Assembly (NCBI RefSeq): GCF_022834715.1
Contig: NZ_BQKC01000001.1
Coordinates: forward strand, 718,501-782,500
DNA: 64,000 nt
Direction of reading: 5' to 3'
Source of the DNA: Granulimonas faecalis
Lineage (GTDB): Bacteria; Actinomycetota; Coriobacteriia; Coriobacteriales; Atopobiaceae
Part shown: positions 300 through 6,879 of the stretch, piece by piece
Layout of the letters: each line of letters starts with the position of its first letter
Position numbering within the stretch: position 1 is the stretch's first letter
Program-made: the position numbers and the translations under genes
The notes under the pieces: generated by a model
The model's input: only the letters and a program-made list of their open reading frames with translations
Database searches by the model: none
What the model was told of the DNA's origin: nothing

Positions 300-2561
300 C
301 TAGTTCCTGCCGCGGCCGTGACGGTGTCCGCGGTGGCCCGGGCGCTCGATGCGCACGGGGCGGCCCTCCTCGTCGAAGACCACCTTGGGGTGCACGCCGG
401 TGCGGTCGGCCGACTCCTCGCCGCCGATGACGTTGGCCTCGGTGTCGGCGATGACGTCGGCCATCTCGTCGGCAAGGTCGAGGGAGAGGATGTCGTCCTC
501 GTCGTCGCCCTCCTCGGCCGCAAGGTCGGAGGAGAGGGAGAGGGGAACCCGCTCGAGCACTGTCACCGGCGCCATGCGGCTGAACAGGGGCACGTACTCG
601 AAGAGCACGCCGGAGGTGGCCAGGCCGTACCACTGGGCCGGGCTGCCGCAGATGCGCCTGATGGCGTACTTGACGCTCATGACGGTGCGGTCCTCACCGG
701 ACAGCTCGGTCTCGGGGGTGAGGAGCTTGCGCAGCATCACGAAGCGGAAGTCGCCGATGGAGCCCGGGTCGCGGTAGATGGAGTAGCGGATGGGCTGGGG
801 GGCCATCTCCTCGCTGCGGACAAGGTCGCCCACTACCTGACGGAGGTACGCGTTCACGCGCTGGTTGACCTTGAAGCCCAGGTGCAGGGTGCACTTGAAG
901 ACGAAGTCGGTGCCGAAGTCGTTGACGGTGTAGGCGTGGGTGAAGGGCTCGTCGGTCACCCGCACGGTCACGAAGAAGTAGCAGCGGGCACGCTTGGGGC
1001 GCTTGTCGAGGATCGAGTAGAGGATGTCTCGGTCGAGCATGTCGGAGCTGGCGTCGTTGGTGAGGAAGACCAGGTTGTCGGCGAGCATGGGGATGGTGTC
1101 GTCGTCGGACAGGCGCCTGAGCTGCGGGATGTAGCGGGCTACAGGCAGGAAGACCGACTGCGAGCGCTCGATGGCGCTGCCGCGGCGCCAGACGAACATG
1201 ATGAAGAAGATGACGGCCGCCATGAGGATGGTGACGTAGCCGCCATGGAAGAACTTGGAGAGCGACGAGAGGAAGAAGGCGCCCTCGAGGGCCATGAAGA
1301 AGCAGGCGAAGATCACGGCGAGGCCGGTGTGGCGGCGCACCCTGGACAGGTAGACGGTGAGCAGCAGGGTGGTCATGAGCATGGTGAGGGTGATGGCCAG
1401 GCCGTAGGCGGCCTCCATGTTGTAGGAGGTCTTGAACAGCAGCACCACGCCGATGCAGCCGATCCACATGACGGTGTTGACCATGGGGATGTAGAGCTGG
1501 CCCTTGGTCTGGGAGGGGTAGGTGACGCGCAGGTGGGGCAGGAGGTTCAGGCGCGTGGCCTCGGAGACCAGGGTGAAGGAGCCGGTGATGAGGGCCTGGG
1601 ACGCGATGAGGCCGGCCACGGCCGACAGCACCACGGCGAAGGCGCGGATGTCCACGGGCATCATCTCGAAGAAGGGGTTGAGCTCGGCCGTGGCAGCCAG
1701 CTCGGCGTTGCCGGCGTTGGCCACGATCCAGGCGCCCTGGCCGAGGTAGTTCAGGAACAGGCAGAACACCACGAAGGGCCAGGACGCGTAGATGTTGGAG
1801 CGGCCCACGTGGCCCATGTCGGAGTAGAGGGCCTCCGCGCCGGTGGTGGCCAGGAACACGAAGCCGAGCACGGCGAAGCCGGCCTTGTTGAGGGGGCCGA
1901 ACAGGAACATGACGCCGCGCAGGGGGTTGAGGGCGCGGAGCATGTCGAGGTTGCCGACGAGGTTGATCGCGCCGGTGACGGCCAGGAAGAGGAACCACAC
2001 GCACATGACCGGGCCGAACATCCTGCCGATGGAGCTCGTGCCGGCGCGCTGCAGGAGGAAGAGGGCGCAGAGGATGACGATGGTGATGAGCACCACGATG
2101 GTGGGGGTGTCGCCGAGGAAGGAGTGGCCCACCTCGATGGTGCGGAGGCCCTCGATGGCCGTGGTGACCGTGACGGCGGGGGTGAGGATGCCGTCGGCGA
2201 GGAGCGCCGCGCCGCCGATCATGGCCGGCAGGATCAGCCACTTGCCGCACCGGCGCACGAGGGAGTAGAGGGCGAAGATGCCGCCCTCGTTGTGGTTGTC
2301 GGCACGCATGGCTACCAGCACGTACTTGACCGTGGTGATGAGCATCACGGTCCACATGATCAGCGACACCGCGCCGATGATCATGTCCTGTGAGACGCTC
2401 GCGAGGCCGCCGTTGCCCGCGACGATGGCCTTCATCACGTAGAGGGGGCTCGTGCCGATGTCGCCGTAGACGACGCCCAAGGTCACGAGGGACATGCCCA
2501 GGGAGAAGGGGATGGCGCCGTGGCCCGCCTTCTTGGCGACGGCCGGGACGGTTGATGCCAT
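300..2561 (-). CDS. kup: KUP-family potassium uptake protein
   Basis: A 753-residue polytopic membrane protein of the KUP/HAK/KT family, which takes up K+ probably by proton symport. The hallmark GVVYGDIGTSPLYV lies near residue 30 and RADNHNEGGIFALYSL near residue 85, followed by about twelve membrane segments and a cytoplasmic C-terminal domain. The ATG at 2561 is chosen because GGAG sits 5 nt upstream; the frame stays open further upstream but has no ribosome site there. It is longer than E. coli Kup (about 620 residues) because of a C-terminal extension, first highly acidic and then His/Arg/Gly-rich. It is monocistronic and convergent with the HAD gene. K+ transporters in this phylum are often under c-di-AMP control, but I did not recognise a ydaO riboswitch upstream. 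Confidence 0.95.
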   Translation of the reverse strand: MASTVPAVAKKAGHGAIPFSLGMSLVTLGVVYGDIGTSPLYVMKAIVAGNGGLASVSQDMIIGAVSLIMWTVMLITTVKYVLVAMRADNHNEGGIFALYSLVRRCGKWLILPAMIGGAALLADGILTPAVTVTTAIEGLRTIEVGHSFLGDTPTIVVLITIVILCALFLLQRAGTSSIGRMFGPVMCVWFLFLAVTGAINLVGNLDMLRALNPLRGVMFLFGPLNKAGFAVLGFVFLATTGAEALYSDMGHVGRSNIYASWPFVVFCLFLNYLGQGAWIVANAGNAELAATAELNPFFEMMPVDIRAFAVVLSAVAGLIASQALITGSFTLVSEATRLNLLPHLRVTYPSQTKGQLYIPMVNTVMWIGCIGVVLLFKTSYNMEAAYGLAITLTMLMTTLLLTVYLSRVRRHTGLAVIFACFFMALEGAFFLSSLSKFFHGGYVTILMAAVIFFIMFVWRRGSAIERSQSVFLPVARYIPQLRRLSDDDTIPMLADNLVFLTNDASSDMLDRDILYSILDKRPKRARCYFFVTVRVTDEPFTHAYTVNDFGTDFVFKCTLHLGFKVNQRVNAYLRQVVGDLVRSEEMAPQPIRYSIYRDPGSIGDFRFVMLRKLLTPETELSGEDRTVMSVKYAIRRICGSPAQWYGLATSGVLFEYVPLFSRMAPVTVLERVPLSLSSDLAAEEGDDEDDILSLDLADEMADVIADTEANVIGGEESADRTGVHPKVVFDEEGRPVRIERPGHRGHRHGRGRN

Positions 2562-2687
2562 GGTGACTCCAATCGAGGGATGGCAGGTGGAAAACTCACC
2601 TAGTCTAGCGTTGTTCCGCTGAGGTGGAAGTCCCTTTGTGCTGGGAAAACATCCATGGTTTCTACCCGGGACCGGTTGTTGCAAATC

Positions 2688-2706
2688 TGTGGCATTCGTG
2701 TGGCAT
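2688..2706 (+). promoter_or_regulatory. Direct repeat TGTGGCAT x2 (candidate response-regulator operator)
   Basis: TGTGGCAT occurs at 2688-2695 and again at 2699-2706, an 11-bp centre-to-centre spacing. That is one helical turn, as expected for dimeric OmpR/PhoB-type winged-helix regulators. It lies about 60 bp upstream of the membrane-protein gene that opens the low-GC island, which itself encodes an OmpR-type regulator. The repeat is seen; its role is inferred. Confidence 0.45.
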
Positions 2707-2766
2707 AGGCCGTGAACATATCCGGGGATTACATGCGAGACTTAAAGCCAGCCAAAGGAGGTTCTT

Positions 2767-3906
2767 ATGGAAAGGTTTTACATAGTATGGAAAATCGTAG
2801 CCCGTGACAGGAAGCTGCCTCTTGTGACTATGGCTGTGGCTTTGGCCCTCTTGATGCCTGCGATTGCTTCTGTTCCTGTGTTTGGCACTCCGTTTCTGCG
2901 TATGCAGGCAGAGAATCAGCTGAGGCAGGTAGAGGAGGAATGGTCGAATGGTTTCTACGATGGGATGACGCCAGAAGAGGAAGAGCCTTTCAAGGAGTTG
3001 CGGGCTGCCTTGAAGGAGGCGGTTTTCTCCCAAAGCGATGCGGTATTTTACTCATCGATGCAAAGGGCGAATGCCGTTGAGAGGGATCTGGCCGCGCAGG
3101 GAGCTCTTGTTTCAAGCGCAGGGCTGTTGGAGGGCTATCAGCTATTCTATGAGGCAATGGCGCAGGCCGGAGGGCCCCAGTCTTTTGATGTTGCGTCGAA
3201 AATGCCGGCGTTTGAATATGCGTCCTACGTATTCGGGACGACCCCGGCAATTATCCTCTGTATGCCGGTCTTAACGTGTGCGGCCGTTGCGGTTGGATCT
3301 TACAGGCAGGGCATTGTGTCCCTGCAGGCGCCCCGGCCTGTTTTGAATCTCTTTGTTTGCACTTTCGCCCCATGGGCTTTGTCCGTCGTAAGCCTCATTG
3401 TTTCCTTCCTCCCCGCTATGGTATGGATGGCCGCTTGCAATGGGTTGGGCGACCTTTCATATCCCATTGCTTTCATGCAGGGTGACCAGGCCATTTCCAC
3501 GACAGTCGGGGAGTCCCTCTTCGTATCCGCGACCCTTGTACTGCTCGGTTCCCTCTGCCTGTCGGCCCTCATGGCCCTCCTTGGCATGTGGTCGAGTGTT
3601 TTCGTTGGTTGCTTGGTGGCCGGTGCGATTGGGCTGCTCCCTAACATTGGGCTGTACGGGGGTGCAGTGCCTGAGGACATCCTTGCTCTGTGCGTCAGCA
3701 CATATCTTGCTCCCGGGATCTTGTGCGGATATGCGGGGTGCTTTAGCGCTGCCGATTCCGTCTTATCAGAAGCACTGTCTCCTTTTCCTTTGTGTTTTGT
3801 GGCATTTGCGCTGCTGATTGTTGCAGCTTCTCTTGTGGGGGCAGCGGCATGGGCACTACGTCGCGTCTATAGGCTATGGCTGACCGAAAGGTGGACCCAT
3901 GCTTGA
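2767..3906 (+). CDS. ABC-2-like transporter membrane subunit
   Basis: A 379-residue integral membrane protein I cannot assign to a named family. A first membrane segment lies at residues 17-38, followed by a roughly 115-residue extracytoplasmic region rich in Glu/Gln/Ala, then about six membrane segments from residue 155 to near the C-terminus, ending in an Arg/Trp-rich tail. This layout matches ABC-2 permeases of peptide or bacteriocin-immunity exporters. The ATG is preceded by AAAGGAGG at good spacing. The ATPase gene starts 8 nt inside its 3' end, so the two are translationally coupled. Codon usage and GC are visibly lower than in flanking genes, which suggests acquisition by transfer. Confidence 0.75.
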   Translation: MERFYIVWKIVARDRKLPLVTMAVALALLMPAIASVPVFGTPFLRMQAENQLRQVEEEWSNGFYDGMTPEEEEPFKELRAALKEAVFSQSDAVFYSSMQRANAVERDLAAQGALVSSAGLLEGYQLFYEAMAQAGGPQSFDVASKMPAFEYASYVFGTTPAIILCMPVLTCAAVAVGSYRQGIVSLQAPRPVLNLFVCTFAPWALSVVSLIVSFLPAMVWMAACNGLGDLSYPIAFMQGDQAISTTVGESLFVSATLVLLGSLCLSALMALLGMWSSVFVGCLVAGAIGLLPNIGLYGGAVPEDILALCVSTYLAPGILCGYAGCFSAADSVLSEALSPFPLCFVAFALLIVAASLVGAAAWALRRVYRLWLTERWTHA

Positions 3907-4585
3907 GGTTTCTAATCTTGCGGCTGGTTATGGATGGAGCCCTGTTTTCCGCAATATCTCATTTCGCCTGCGTCGAGGTGAGGTGGTTGGCCTTGCCGCG
4001 CCTAATGGAGTGGGAAAGACGACGCTTATGCGTGCCCTTGCAGGGGATGTGCCCGCTGGGAAAGGCTCCGTCGTTGAAGCGGATGGACAAAAGCGGCTCC
4101 CAGGGCGCTCTCGGCGCTGGCCCGTGTACTACTCGGGATGGCAGCAGGTGACTCAGCGGTGCCCGTTGAGCGCCTTTGAGCTTATGGGCCATGCGGCGGG
4201 GTGTTGGGGTTCGGATGCGTGCACTGAAGCGATTGGAGACCGATTGGGCGTCCTCTCGTTTTGGAAGAGGCCGCTTCGCTCCTACTCGCAGGGCATGATT
4301 CAACAAACACTCCTTGCGATGGCATCGGCAACGGAAGCGCCCTACACGCTCCTCGATGAGCCGATGAACGCCTTGGATCCCCTGCGAACGAAGCAGGCTG
4401 AGCTTGAAGTGCGTGCTATGGCACGTGCGGGAAGGACCGTCCTCATTTCCTCCCATTTGCTCGAGGGGCTGCAGCGCATATGCGATCGCGTCCTCTTTCT
4501 CCATTGCGATGCCGTTGAGGAGGTGAAGGGAAATGTGGACTTGAGGGAAGGATTTTTCAGTTGCTATGAGACGAGCAGAGAGTAA
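3899..4585 (+). CDS. ABC transporter ATP-binding protein
   Basis: A compact 228-residue nucleotide-binding subunit. It has Walker A APNGVGKTT (about residue 35), a divergent signature SYSQGMIQQ (about 132), Walker B TLLDEPMNALD (about 152) and an H-loop in ISSHLLEG. It resembles ATPases of ABC-2 exporters for peptides or antibiotics. It overlaps the membrane-subunit gene by 8 nt and is followed 10 nt later by the small secreted-protein gene, so exporter and peptide are probably co-expressed. The transported substrate is unknown; the neighbouring secreted protein could be the cargo or the agent resisted. GC is lower than in the window's housekeeping genes. Confidence 0.88.
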   Translation: MLEVSNLAAGYGWSPVFRNISFRLRRGEVVGLAAPNGVGKTTLMRALAGDVPAGKGSVVEADGQKRLPGRSRRWPVYYSGWQQVTQRCPLSAFELMGHAAGCWGSDACTEAIGDRLGVLSFWKRPLRSYSQGMIQQTLLAMASATEAPYTLLDEPMNALDPLRTKQAELEVRAMARAGRTVLISSHLLEGLQRICDRVLFLHCDAVEEVKGNVDLREGFFSCYETSRE

Positions 4586-4595
4586 GGGGTTGGAC

Positions 4596-4916
4596 ATGCG
4601 GATGAGTAAGAGGGGCATCGGCCTGCTGGTGGCCTTGTTGGCAGTCGCGATCTTGGGTTTGGGCGCCCCGGCCCAGGCCCAGGCGGCCGTGAAGCAGCCC
4701 GATCAGGTGCAGACCTATACTGATGAGGTGATTGACACCTTTAAGGAGTTCACCTGTGGCCTTTTTCGCGTTGATCGGTATGATATTAAATATAAAAGGA
4801 TAACATACCAGCGCACATACTCCTCTAAGGACACGGTGATCGATTATTACAACGGATGGTATAACGGCTATCAGGGTCAGATTTCTCAGCACAAGCTAAT
4901 CTATACGTTGAGGTAG
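4596..4916 (+). CDS. Small secreted protein of unknown family
   Basis: A 106-residue protein. The ATG at 4596 is chosen because AAGGGG lies 6 nt upstream and the ATPase stop is only 10 nt away; an upstream in-frame ATG at 4566 lacks a site. The N-terminus is a clear Sec signal peptide (KRG, a hydrophobic stretch, then APAQAQA) with predicted cleavage near residue 31. The mature part of about 75 residues is rich in Tyr and charged residues, has a single Cys (FTCGLF) and ends in ...KLIYTLR. It lacks the features of lactococcin-972, lanthipeptide or double-glycine bacteriocins. Its place between an ABC exporter and a two-component system suggests a bacteriocin, pheromone or sensed envelope protein, but I do not recognise it. 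Confidence 0.7.
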   Translation: MRMSKRGIGLLVALLAVAILGLGAPAQAQAAVKQPDQVQTYTDEVIDTFKEFTCGLFRVDRYDIKYKRITYQRTYSSKDTVIDYYNGWYNGYQGQISQHKLIYTLR

Positions 4917-4932
4917 TGCTGATCGTTTAGTT

Positions 4933-4958
4933 AGGTAGGGGGCGAACGCCCCCTACCT
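4933..4958 (+). terminator. Hairpin after the secreted-protein gene
   Basis: AGGTAGGGGGC pairs with GCCCCCTACCT across a GAAC tetraloop, 17 nt after the stop codon. The T-run is short (TTG), so termination may be partial, separating an abundant exporter/peptide transcript from lower expression of the two-component genes downstream. Confidence 0.6.
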
Positions 4959-4978
4959 TGTGCGCGAAGGGAAGCGCA

Positions 4979-5680
4979 GTGGCACTGATTTATCTCGCAG
5001 ATGACGAGCGTGAGGTGCGCGAGATTCTCAATCGCTTTCTTGCTGCAGATGGCCACGAGGTTCTTGCTTTCGGTTCCGGCTCCGAGTTTTGGGACGTGTT
5101 CTCCAGAACGCCTTGCGATCTTGCAATACTCGATATAATGATGCCCGGGATAGACGGCATCGAGCTGCTGGCTCGCATCAGAGGCTCGTCTCAGGTGCCT
5201 GTTGTCATGGTCAGCGCCAAAGATTCGGACGAAGACTATTGCCGTGGCCTGGTATTTGGTGCCGACGATTACATTACGAAGCCGTTCAAGCCAACGCTCC
5301 TGGTGGCAAAGGTGCGTTCGATACTCCATCGGATCGATGTGAGGTCACGGGATCTTGGTGGAATGCCTAAAAGGTGGGGCAACCTCGAATACTGCGCTCG
5401 GACGAGAACCTTTTCTGTGGACGGTATGGAGCTTGCCCTGACGGCTCAAGAGCATCAGCTCCTTCTCTTCTACTTCAAAAAATTTAACGTACCGGTCTCT
5501 CGGGACGAGTTGTCCCGAGAGGTCTGGGGCTCTGAGCCTCTTCCTGCAAGTCGTGCCATCGACGAGGCTAATCGCAGGCTCAGGCGCCGTCTCTTAGCGG
5601 CTGGTAGCACCGTGTACAACCAGACGGTGTGGGGACGCGGCTACCGTCTGACCTATCGGGAAGGGGAGGGGCGGCTGTGA
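4979..5680 (+). CDS. OmpR/PhoB-family response regulator
   Basis: A 233-residue regulator. The receiver domain (1-115) has the acidic pair DDE near the start, the phospho-acceptor Asp in LAILDIMMPG (about residue 52) and the Lys of TKPFKP. A winged-helix DNA-binding domain covers about 130-230, ending VWGRGYRLTYR. The GTG at 4979 is preferred: GAAGG is 8 nt upstream, while the alternative TTG at 4958 lies inside the preceding hairpin. The kinase gene starts in a GTGA overlap with its stop, so it pairs with that kinase. It probably controls the exporter/secreted-protein genes upstream, perhaps through the direct repeats at 2688. Confidence 0.92.
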   Translation: MALIYLADDEREVREILNRFLAADGHEVLAFGSGSEFWDVFSRTPCDLAILDIMMPGIDGIELLARIRGSSQVPVVMVSAKDSDEDYCRGLVFGADDYITKPFKPTLLVAKVRSILHRIDVRSRDLGGMPKRWGNLEYCARTRTFSVDGMELALTAQEHQLLLFYFKKFNVPVSRDELSREVWGSEPLPASRAIDEANRRLRRRLLAAGSTVYNQTVWGRGYRLTYREGEGRL

Positions 5681-6879
5681 CCGTGCCGAGCAACCATCCG
5701 GGCCTGCTTAACCGTGCGGGCATGGTGCTGGGGGTCGTTGTGGCGCTCATTCCCTTCCTGTTTGTGGCTGCCCAGTGGTGCATGCTGCAGGACCTTGCTC
5801 GCCGTGCCCTTTCGTCGGGAAACATCGGTTTTTTTCACAATGGACCGGTCGCTCCCGAAGTGTGGCTCATCTCTCTCGACCCGTCTCTTCAGCCGTCATC
5901 GAAGCCCGAGGGGTACGTGGGCGTGCTCTCGGCTGACCTGCTGGAGCATGTTCGAAGTGAGGCACATCGACTTGAGCCAGGCGAGATGTCCTCATATGTC
6001 AGGGGCGACGAATGCTTTTTCTTTACGCCCGAGAAGTCCGCCAATCCCAGTGAGACGGACTATAAGCCTGCTGGTGTTCTTGTGGCAGACGCGAGCGTGG
6101 CATGGGCGCTTGCGAGGTTTTCCGGAGGGGTCATTGCTTTCCTTTGTTTTGGCGTTGACGTCTTGCTCTGGATGGGCGTTCGATATATGAAGTCTCAGTT
6201 GCAAAGAGCTGAGTTGGCAAAGAGGGACTTCTTTGCCAATGCTTCGCATGAACTTAAGACGCCCCTCATGGTTATCGGAGCGCACATCGATGCCGTACGT
6301 GCCCAGCATGAGAGCTTTGACGATGCGGCCGCCGGTATCGACAGGGAACTGTCGCGGTCAGAGCGGCTCGTGGGCGACATCCTCCTCCTCTCCAAGGCGG
6401 ATGCCGGAATGGTTGATGTTTCAATCGCATCTTTCGATGTCCGGGAGACGCTCTTCGACGTAGTGCGCTCATTGGGCCCAGAGGCTCGTTCTCGCGGAAT
6501 CGAGCTTTCCCCTGTGAATCCCACGCCTCTTGTCCTGGGTTCTGACGAGGATAAAGTTGCGACCATTCTGTTTAACGCAGCTGTAAACGCGCTCCGTCAT
6601 GCGGCGAGCGTGGTGAGGGTAGGAATGACGGTCCAAGAGGAACAGATCGAGCTTTTCGTTGAGAACGACGGGGCAGCTCTCGGGAACCAAGAGAGGGAGC
6701 ATCTGTTTGATCGTTTTTACAGTTGCGATGCGGGAGGTACCGGCATTGGTATGGCGCTTGCAGCTGACTATGCCGAACGGTTGGGCGCGAAGCTGACCGC
6801 TGACTCAAGCAAAGGTGGGACTCGTGTGAGCCTTTGGTTACCAAGAACATGGGCCTCAGAGCACCTCCGCGCGCCCTGA
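5677..6879 (+). CDS. Sensor histidine kinase
   Basis: A 400-residue membrane kinase. There is one membrane segment at about 15-35, an extracytoplasmic sensor region of about 100 residues, a second membrane segment at about 150-170, and then the dimerisation H-box FANASHELKTPL with phospho-acceptor His near residue 192. The ATPase domain has an N-box (LFNAAVNALRHAA), the FDRFY motif and a short G-box (GGTGIGMALA). The GTG start overlaps the regulator's TGA by 3 nt, with GGAGGGG upstream. The sensed signal is unknown; co-location with an exporter and a secreted protein suggests a peptide or envelope stress. The 3' end overlaps a hairpin facing rlmKL. Confidence 0.92.
   Translation: MTVPSNHPGLLNRAGMVLGVVVALIPFLFVAAQWCMLQDLARRALSSGNIGFFHNGPVAPEVWLISLDPSLQPSSKPEGYVGVLSADLLEHVRSEAHRLEPGEMSSYVRGDECFFFTPEKSANPSETDYKPAGVLVADASVAWALARFSGGVIAFLCFGVDVLLWMGVRYMKSQLQRAELAKRDFFANASHELKTPLMVIGAHIDAVRAQHESFDDAAAGIDRELSRSERLVGDILLLSKADAGMVDVSIASFDVRETLFDVVRSLGPEARSRGIELSPVNPTPLVLGSDEDKVATILFNAAVNALRHAASVVRVGMTVQEEQIELFVENDGAALGNQEREHLFDRFYSCDAGGTGIGMALAADYAERLGAKLTADSSKGGTRVSLWLPRTWASEHLRAP

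What the first reader, a model, noticed from the sequence alone, without database searches (positions are those of the whole stretch)
2688..6879. Low-GC island: ABC exporter, orphan secreted protein and two-component system
Seen: five co-directional genes with overlaps or short gaps, visibly lower GC than the flanking genes, flanked by ordinary housekeeping genes (kup, rlmKL). Established: ABC-2 exporters beside OmpR-type two-component pairs often sense and resist, or secrete, antimicrobial peptides. Inference: this is a horizontally acquired peptide secretion, immunity or signalling system whose small secreted protein belongs to no family I know. It is the best candidate in the window for an undescribed system.
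Basis: partly seen in the sequence, partly recalled or inferred. Interest (0 to 1): 0.72.

Follow-up and report, generated by a model that had tools for sequence, protein, structure and literature searches.

The report
Putative bacteriocin operon in Coriobacteriales
A gut-type actinobacterium carries two versions of a five-gene cassette that makes a small secreted beta-sheet protein of no known family beside a membrane pump and a sensor that probably switches the cassette on, which looks like an undescribed kind of bacterial peptide weapon with its own protection.

Summary
Five co-directional genes (2767-6879) have GC 51-58% and GC3 0.60-0.68, against GC 66-73% and GC3 about 0.95 in the flanking kup and rlmKL. 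In seven relatives kup and rlmKL are direct neighbours; in the two closest, a different gene occupies the slot. The cassette is therefore an insertion.

It is not unique. A second complete five-gene copy, only 27-44% identical, lies elsewhere in the same genome. The 106-aa secreted protein founds an undescribed family (26 sequences aligned) found in Coriobacteriales, including Collinsella. Fifteen of about 20 distinct loci carry it beside the same permease family; the others are mostly tandem pairs. AlphaFold2 gives four long beta-strands (pLDDT 93.6) with no known match. The permease has an ABC-2 exporter fold (NosY Z 16.5, PmtD Z 14.5). Sister loci keep pump and sensor but lack the secreted protein.

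A TGTGGCA-N4-TGWGGCA direct repeat occurs exactly twice in the 2.23-Mb genome, upstream of each copy, and precedes homologous operons in relatives.

Best reading: a Sec-secreted bacteriocin-like effector with dedicated ABC self-protection under an autoregulated two-component system. It works like lactococcin 972 operons but is not detectably related. Antimicrobial activity is inferred, not shown.

The parts
2677..2705 (+). Three tandem TGTKGCA half-sites with 11-bp period (TGTTGCA-AATC-TGTGGCA-TTCG-TGTGGCA); predicted binding site of the response regulator
   Evidence: exact pattern TGTGGCANNNNTGWGGCA occurs twice in 2.23 Mb, once before each five-gene operon; also upstream of RR/HK-bearing operons in G027, G028 (L057, L058, L100), weak in G021 (L060)
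2767..3906 (+). ABC-2-type permease, 379 aa, with extracellular helical insert (about residues 41-133) between TM1 and TM2 and a conserved NGxGDxxYP hairpin
   Evidence: AF2 pLDDT 86.2; VIA-align Z 16.5 to NosY, 14.5 to PmtD; no Pfam or NCBIfam model
3899..4585 (+). ABC ATPase, 228 aa
   Evidence: Pfam ABC_tran 1.3e-17; PDB relatives PmtC 6xjh and NosF
4596..4916 (+). Small secreted protein (SEC): precursor 106 aa, predicted mature about 75 aa after an AQA-A type signal peptide; Tyr/Trp-rich all-beta protein
   Evidence: Family alignment A1/A2/A4; homologues; AF2 pLDDT 93.6, four strands; no curated family
4933..4958 (+). Perfect GC-rich hairpin between SEC and RR (11-bp stem, no U-tract): possible attenuator or RNA-stabilising element
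   Evidence: -34.4 kcal/mol for 4917-4980, z -5.1, 0 of 200 shuffles as stable
4979..5680 (+). OmpR-family response regulator
   Evidence: Pfam Response_reg 2.7e-28, Trans_reg_C 6.1e-14
5677..6879 (+). Sensor histidine kinase with an extracellular sensor region of about 110 aa
   Evidence: Pfam HisKA 5.6e-13, HATPase_c 4.8e-16; 30% identical to the paralogue and related to kinases of sister loci

Best explanation
A horizontally acquired, self-regulated bacteriocin-like operon. Steps with direct computational support: (1) the small protein carries an N-terminal hydrophobic signal and folds as a compact four-stranded beta protein; (2) it is encoded with an ABC-2-fold permease and ATPase; (3) an 11-bp-period direct repeat, found in this genome only upstream of the two copies, marks the promoter as a likely target of the encoded response regulator. 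Inferred steps: the Sec pathway exports the protein, signal peptidase removes about 31 residues, and the mature 9-kDa protein acts on the envelope of competing bacteria. The ABC pump, with its extracellular helical domain, removes the protein (or the complex it forms) from the producer's own membrane, giving immunity. The kinase senses the protein or the envelope damage, and the response regulator raises transcription of the whole operon. The hairpin after the secreted gene would let that gene be expressed above the regulator genes.
For: Recurrence and linkage: 15 distinct loci with SEC next to a permease of the same family in either order, with permease and ATPase separate or fused. Second five-gene copy in the same genome. 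Sister loci with pump + TCS but no SEC (L057, L058, L060), as expected of immunity/resistance-only loci. Tandem SEC pairs without the pump, in some cases next to a 123-169-aa hydrophobic protein (L040, L101, L107, L108), and once followed by RR-HK (L100). Scattered presence (32 of 397 order genomes) and insertion between kup and rlmKL. Shared cis-element. Permease fold is that of exporters including PmtD, which exports membrane-active peptides (function of PmtCD from established knowledge). Genuine lactococcin 972-type operons (Sec-secreted beta-sandwich bacteriocin + permease + ATPase) are organised alike (PMC11796350). SEC-permease distance matrices correlate weakly (Mantel rho 0.25, p 0.028).
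Against: No activity data of any kind. SEC has no detectable sequence or fold relation to a known bacteriocin. Within Collinsella aerofaciens SEC is conserved, not diversifying. One SEC-family locus (L100) has a TCS but no ABC, which fits a signal role equally well. The signal peptide was judged by eye; no predictor was available. Mature proteins are only mildly basic and a few are acidic.
Confidence: 0.5

Rival explanations
1. Signalling module: the secreted beta protein is an autoinducer or accessory ligand for the kinase, and the ABC pump modulates its level or protects from a foreign peptide; no killing is involved.
For: Two SEC genes directly precede RR-HK without an ABC in G028 (L100), with the same direct repeat upstream. 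SEC lies directly before RR in both own-genome copies.
Against: Most SEC loci (Collinsella and others) have the ABC but no TCS, and sister TCS+ABC loci exist without SEC (L057, L058, L060). A 75-aa folded protein is large for a pheromone.
Confidence: 0.22
2. Antimicrobial-peptide resistance cassette: the TCS senses a foreign membrane or cell-wall-active peptide, the ABC detoxifies it, and SEC is a secreted decoy or scavenger that binds the drug or its target.
For: TCS beside ABC transporters commonly sense and resist peptide antibiotics (established for BceRS-BceAB and LanRK-LanFEG). SEC-less versions exist.
Against: Does not explain tandem SEC pairs without the pump, nor the orphan SEC at G000:C1:1309861.
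Confidence: 0.18
3. The ABC pump itself exports the small protein, as PmtCD exports phenol-soluble modulins.
For: Permease fold match to PmtD Z 14.5 and ATPase match to PmtC 6xjh.
Against: SEC has a Sec-type signal sequence with an AQA-A cleavage motif, so it needs no dedicated exporter (read from sequence). PmtCD substrates lack such leaders (established knowledge).
Confidence: 0.07

Closest known systems
Lactococcin 972 / streptococcin B operons (PF09683 + long permease + ATPase)
   Same: Sec-type secreted small aromatic-rich beta protein encoded with an ABC permease and ATPase thought to give immunity (PMC11796350)
   Different: No profile match of SEC to the Lcn972 family (hhalign probability 0.1%); permease 379 aa ABC-2 type instead of about 700 aa; TCS in the operon. 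True Lcn972-type operons occur separately in this same genome.
BceRS-BceAB and LanRK-LanFEG detoxification modules
   Same: Two-component system beside an ABC pump
   Different: The permease is a single 379-aa ABC-2 protein of an unmodelled family, and the operon includes a secreted protein.
PmtCD (phenol-soluble modulin exporter)
   Same: ABC-2 fold permease (Z 14.5) and similar ATPase (6xjh)
   Different: The window permease has an added extracellular helical insert; the operon protein has a Sec signal; a TCS is encoded alongside.
NosFY ABC transporter
   Same: Closest permease fold (Z 16.5, 237 residues aligned)
   Different: 12% identity; biology unrelated as far as the operon shows.

Membership tests
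Lactococcin 972 family bacteriocins | Match to PF09683 or profile similarity to the family | tested here: not met
   Pfam scans of all 26 members gave no PF09683 hit; hhalign A2 vs A3 probability 0.1%. A3 itself finds 9hkj at 2.6e-11 and 2lgn at 1.8e-4, so the test works.
Lactococcin 972 family bacteriocins | Two three-stranded sheets forming a beta-sandwich | tested here: inconclusive
   SEC model has four long strands; Foldseek and VIA list no Lcn972 structure, which does not exclude a relation.
Lactococcin 972-type operon | Permease of about 650-750 aa plus an ATPase | tested here: not met
   Permease is 379 aa with an ABC-2 fold; genuine Lcn972 loci in the order have 669-749-aa permeases.
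ABC-2 (type V) exporters | Permease with ABC-2 transmembrane fold | tested here: met
   The best-ranked VIA rows shown are ABC-2 transporters (NosY, PmtD, ABCG, CcmB, KpsM; Z 10.7-16.5); one family member hits PF12698 at 3.2e-4.
OmpR-type two-component system | Receiver + winged-helix RR with HisKA/HATPase_c kinase | tested here: met
Bacteriocin | Inhibits growth of other bacteria | not testable with these tools
   Needs an assay.
Bacteriocin | Dedicated immunity gene linked to the structural gene | tested here: inconclusive
   Constant linkage of an ABC pair at 15 type-A loci, and small hydrophobic proteins at four tandem loci; immunity function untested.

The most novel reading that the evidence does not exclude
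The secreted proteins are a new, fold-distinct family of Sec-exported beta-sheet bacteriocins of Coriobacteriales. They come as single proteins protected by an ABC-2 pump and as tandem pairs, possibly two-component bacteriocins with small membrane immunity proteins. A shared TGTGGCA direct repeat may let one response regulator cross-induce both cassettes of a genome.
Probability: 0.4. Interest if true: 0.75.

Novelty: new variant of a known kind. Interest (0 to 1): 0.58.

Why it matters
Searches of the held paper library found no bacteriocin of this kind described from Collinsella or Olsenella (titles and abstracts read, most full texts not). If true, this gives a family of small secreted antibacterial proteins with no known fold relative in common human gut actinobacteria, ready-made pump/effector pairs for testing immunity specificity, and a defined two-component operator with only two sites in the genome.

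Tried and rejected
Lactococcin 972 membership: rejected at sequence level. DUF5626 hit of SEC (E 0.03-0.08, one member only): treated as chance. Matches to SEC in L063 and L064 (441-445-aa proteins) and in L065: judged chance signal-peptide matches, since the profile search did not retain those genomes. Foldseek and VIA matches of SEC (E above 0.5, Z 3.6 or less, mostly ribosomal proteins): no informative neighbour. Collection scan with the permease: no relatives. Plasmid collection: no SEC relatives. Homology among the small membrane proteins of tandem loci: none found. Faster evolution of SEC than of the rest: not supported. Mechanism as dedicated exporter of SEC: disfavoured by the Sec signal. 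Presence of the family outside Actinomycetota was not tested beyond plasmids; within the phylum sample all five positive genomes are Coriobacteriales.

Full report
Observation. The five genes are present as described and run in one operon-like array with overlaps or gaps of 10-62 bp. GC and GC3 are far below those of the neighbours: GC3 0.60-0.68 against 0.95-0.98. Kup and RlmKL are direct neighbours in several relatives where both could be placed, with 93-411 bp between the protein matches in G019, G021, G044, G058, G059, G086 and G113. In the two closest genomes (Kup 86% identical) a serine-carboxypeptidase-like gene occupies the slot. The window cassette is therefore an insertion at a site that takes different cargo. 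No integrase was looked for beyond the gene list.

Host. The order is identified because loci of family f3/genus g39 are the same contigs as named Collinsella records: contig lengths 13,733, 668,965 and 78,748 recur. The window lies in another family (f1) of the same order, which I infer to be Atopobiaceae.

Not a singleton. A second complete cassette (permease, ATPase, SEC, RR, HK in the same order) lies at G000:C1:50,616-54,762. Its proteins are 27, 38, 31, 44 and 30% identical to the window's, and its GC is higher (57-65%). A third SEC gene with a stop-interrupted tandem neighbour lies at G000:C1:1,309,454-1,310,247 without a pump.

The family. A profile of SEC found members in 32 of 397 genomes of the order at E up to 0.01. 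Only 5 of 396 genomes sampled over the phylum were positive, all in the same order. Hits weaker than about 1e-4 are probably chance. The mature family reads V-x-D-T-Y-x-x-F ... Y-x-x-T-Y-K-x-L-x-Y ... G ... K-C-x-Y-x-x-W; it is 73-89 aa, 13-24% aromatic, and mostly pI 8-9. No Pfam or NCBIfam model covers it. AlphaFold2 on 26 sequences gave mean pLDDT 93.6 and four strands of 13-15 residues. Neither PDB nor BFVD has a significant match.

Two locus types. Type A: SEC next to the ABC pair. All 15 distinct type-A loci carry a permease of the same family (profile scores 74-471). The permease is separate from the ATPase, fused to it, or duplicated, and SEC lies before or after. Type B: tandem pairs of two SEC subtypes without the pump (L100, L101, L106/L107, L108, and the decayed L040 pair). 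Four of these lie next to a 123-169-aa hydrophobic protein that is not detectably shared between them, and L100 is followed by RR-HK. Loci with permease, ATPase, RR and HK but no SEC exist in G021, G027 and G028. This pattern, effector plus protector, protector alone and effector pairs, is what bacteriocin systems show. It is an argument by analogy.

The pump. The permease has no family model, but its AlphaFold2 model (pLDDT 86.2) is an ABC-2 transporter: NosY Z 16.5, PmtD Z 14.5, then ABCG, CcmB and KpsM. It has an additional helical extracellular insert after TM1 (residues about 41-133). The ATPase resembles PmtC and NosF.

Regulation. Reading the promoter showed TGTGGCA-TTCG-TGTGGCA at 2688-2705, preceded by a third half-site TGTTGCA at 2677. 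The paralogous operon has TGTGGCA-TTTC-TGAGGCA in the same place. The pattern TGTGGCANNNNTGWGGCA occurs exactly twice in the whole genome, at these two sites; the control pattern occurs zero times. With one mismatch allowed only the third half-site is added, against eight control hits. The same repeat precedes the TCS-bearing operons of G027 and G028, with a degenerate version before SEC-SEC-RR-HK (L100), and a weaker one before that of G021. The pattern was built from four of these sites, so their scores are partly circular; the genome-wide count is the independent test. It is absent before the TCS-less SEC loci tested. An 11-bp direct repeat is the usual OmpR-type operator (established knowledge), so the encoded regulator is the likely ligand, and cross-talk between the two cassettes is possible. 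A strong hairpin separates SEC from RR.

Lactococcin 972. The same genome also has two lactococcin 972-like genes (G000:C1:11,096 and 1,254,495), each next to a 719-734-aa permease and an ATPase. The profile that includes them finds 9hkj and 2lgn in the PDB, whereas SEC does not match it. So SEC works like, but is not shown to be, a lactococcin 972 relative.

Between distant loci SEC (26%) and permease (22%) diverge equally and their distances correlate weakly (rho 0.25, p 0.028). Between Collinsella strains SEC is the more conserved. So there is no sign of rapid effector diversification within a species.

Verdict. A real, recurrent, horizontally distributed system with a previously unmodelled secreted family. 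The most likely role is a bacteriocin with ABC self-immunity under an autoregulated TCS (0.5). A signalling or resistance role without killing remains possible.

Noticed in passing
L117 (G000:C1:11096) and L118 (G000:C1:1254495): Two lactococcin 972-like secreted proteins in the same genome, each beside a permease of about 720-734 aa and an ATPase: putative Lcn972-type bacteriocin operons in Coriobacteriales, below the PF09683 cut-off.
   Followed up: partly
L100, L101, L106/L107, L108, L040: Tandem pairs of SEC-family genes of two subtypes, four of them next to a short hydrophobic membrane protein; possible two-component bacteriocins with immunity proteins. L108 sits within a ribosomal-protein/rpoA operon region.
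   Followed up: partly
L142/L143 (G027, G028), between kup and rlmKL: The kup-rlmKL slot carries a peptidase-S10-like gene of lower GC in the two closest relatives: an insertion site with variable cargo.
   Followed up: partly
window 2560-2684: The listed TTG start of kup (2684) is probably too far upstream: relatives align only from about residue 40, so the intergenic region before the permease is about 200 bp.
   Followed up: no
L103, L104, L111, L114 (Collinsella): SEC loci with a tandem-duplicated permease (about 670-766 aa), a separate ATPase and a permease-ATPase fusion (604 aa), flanked in L104/L111 by two different SEC genes.
   Followed up: partly
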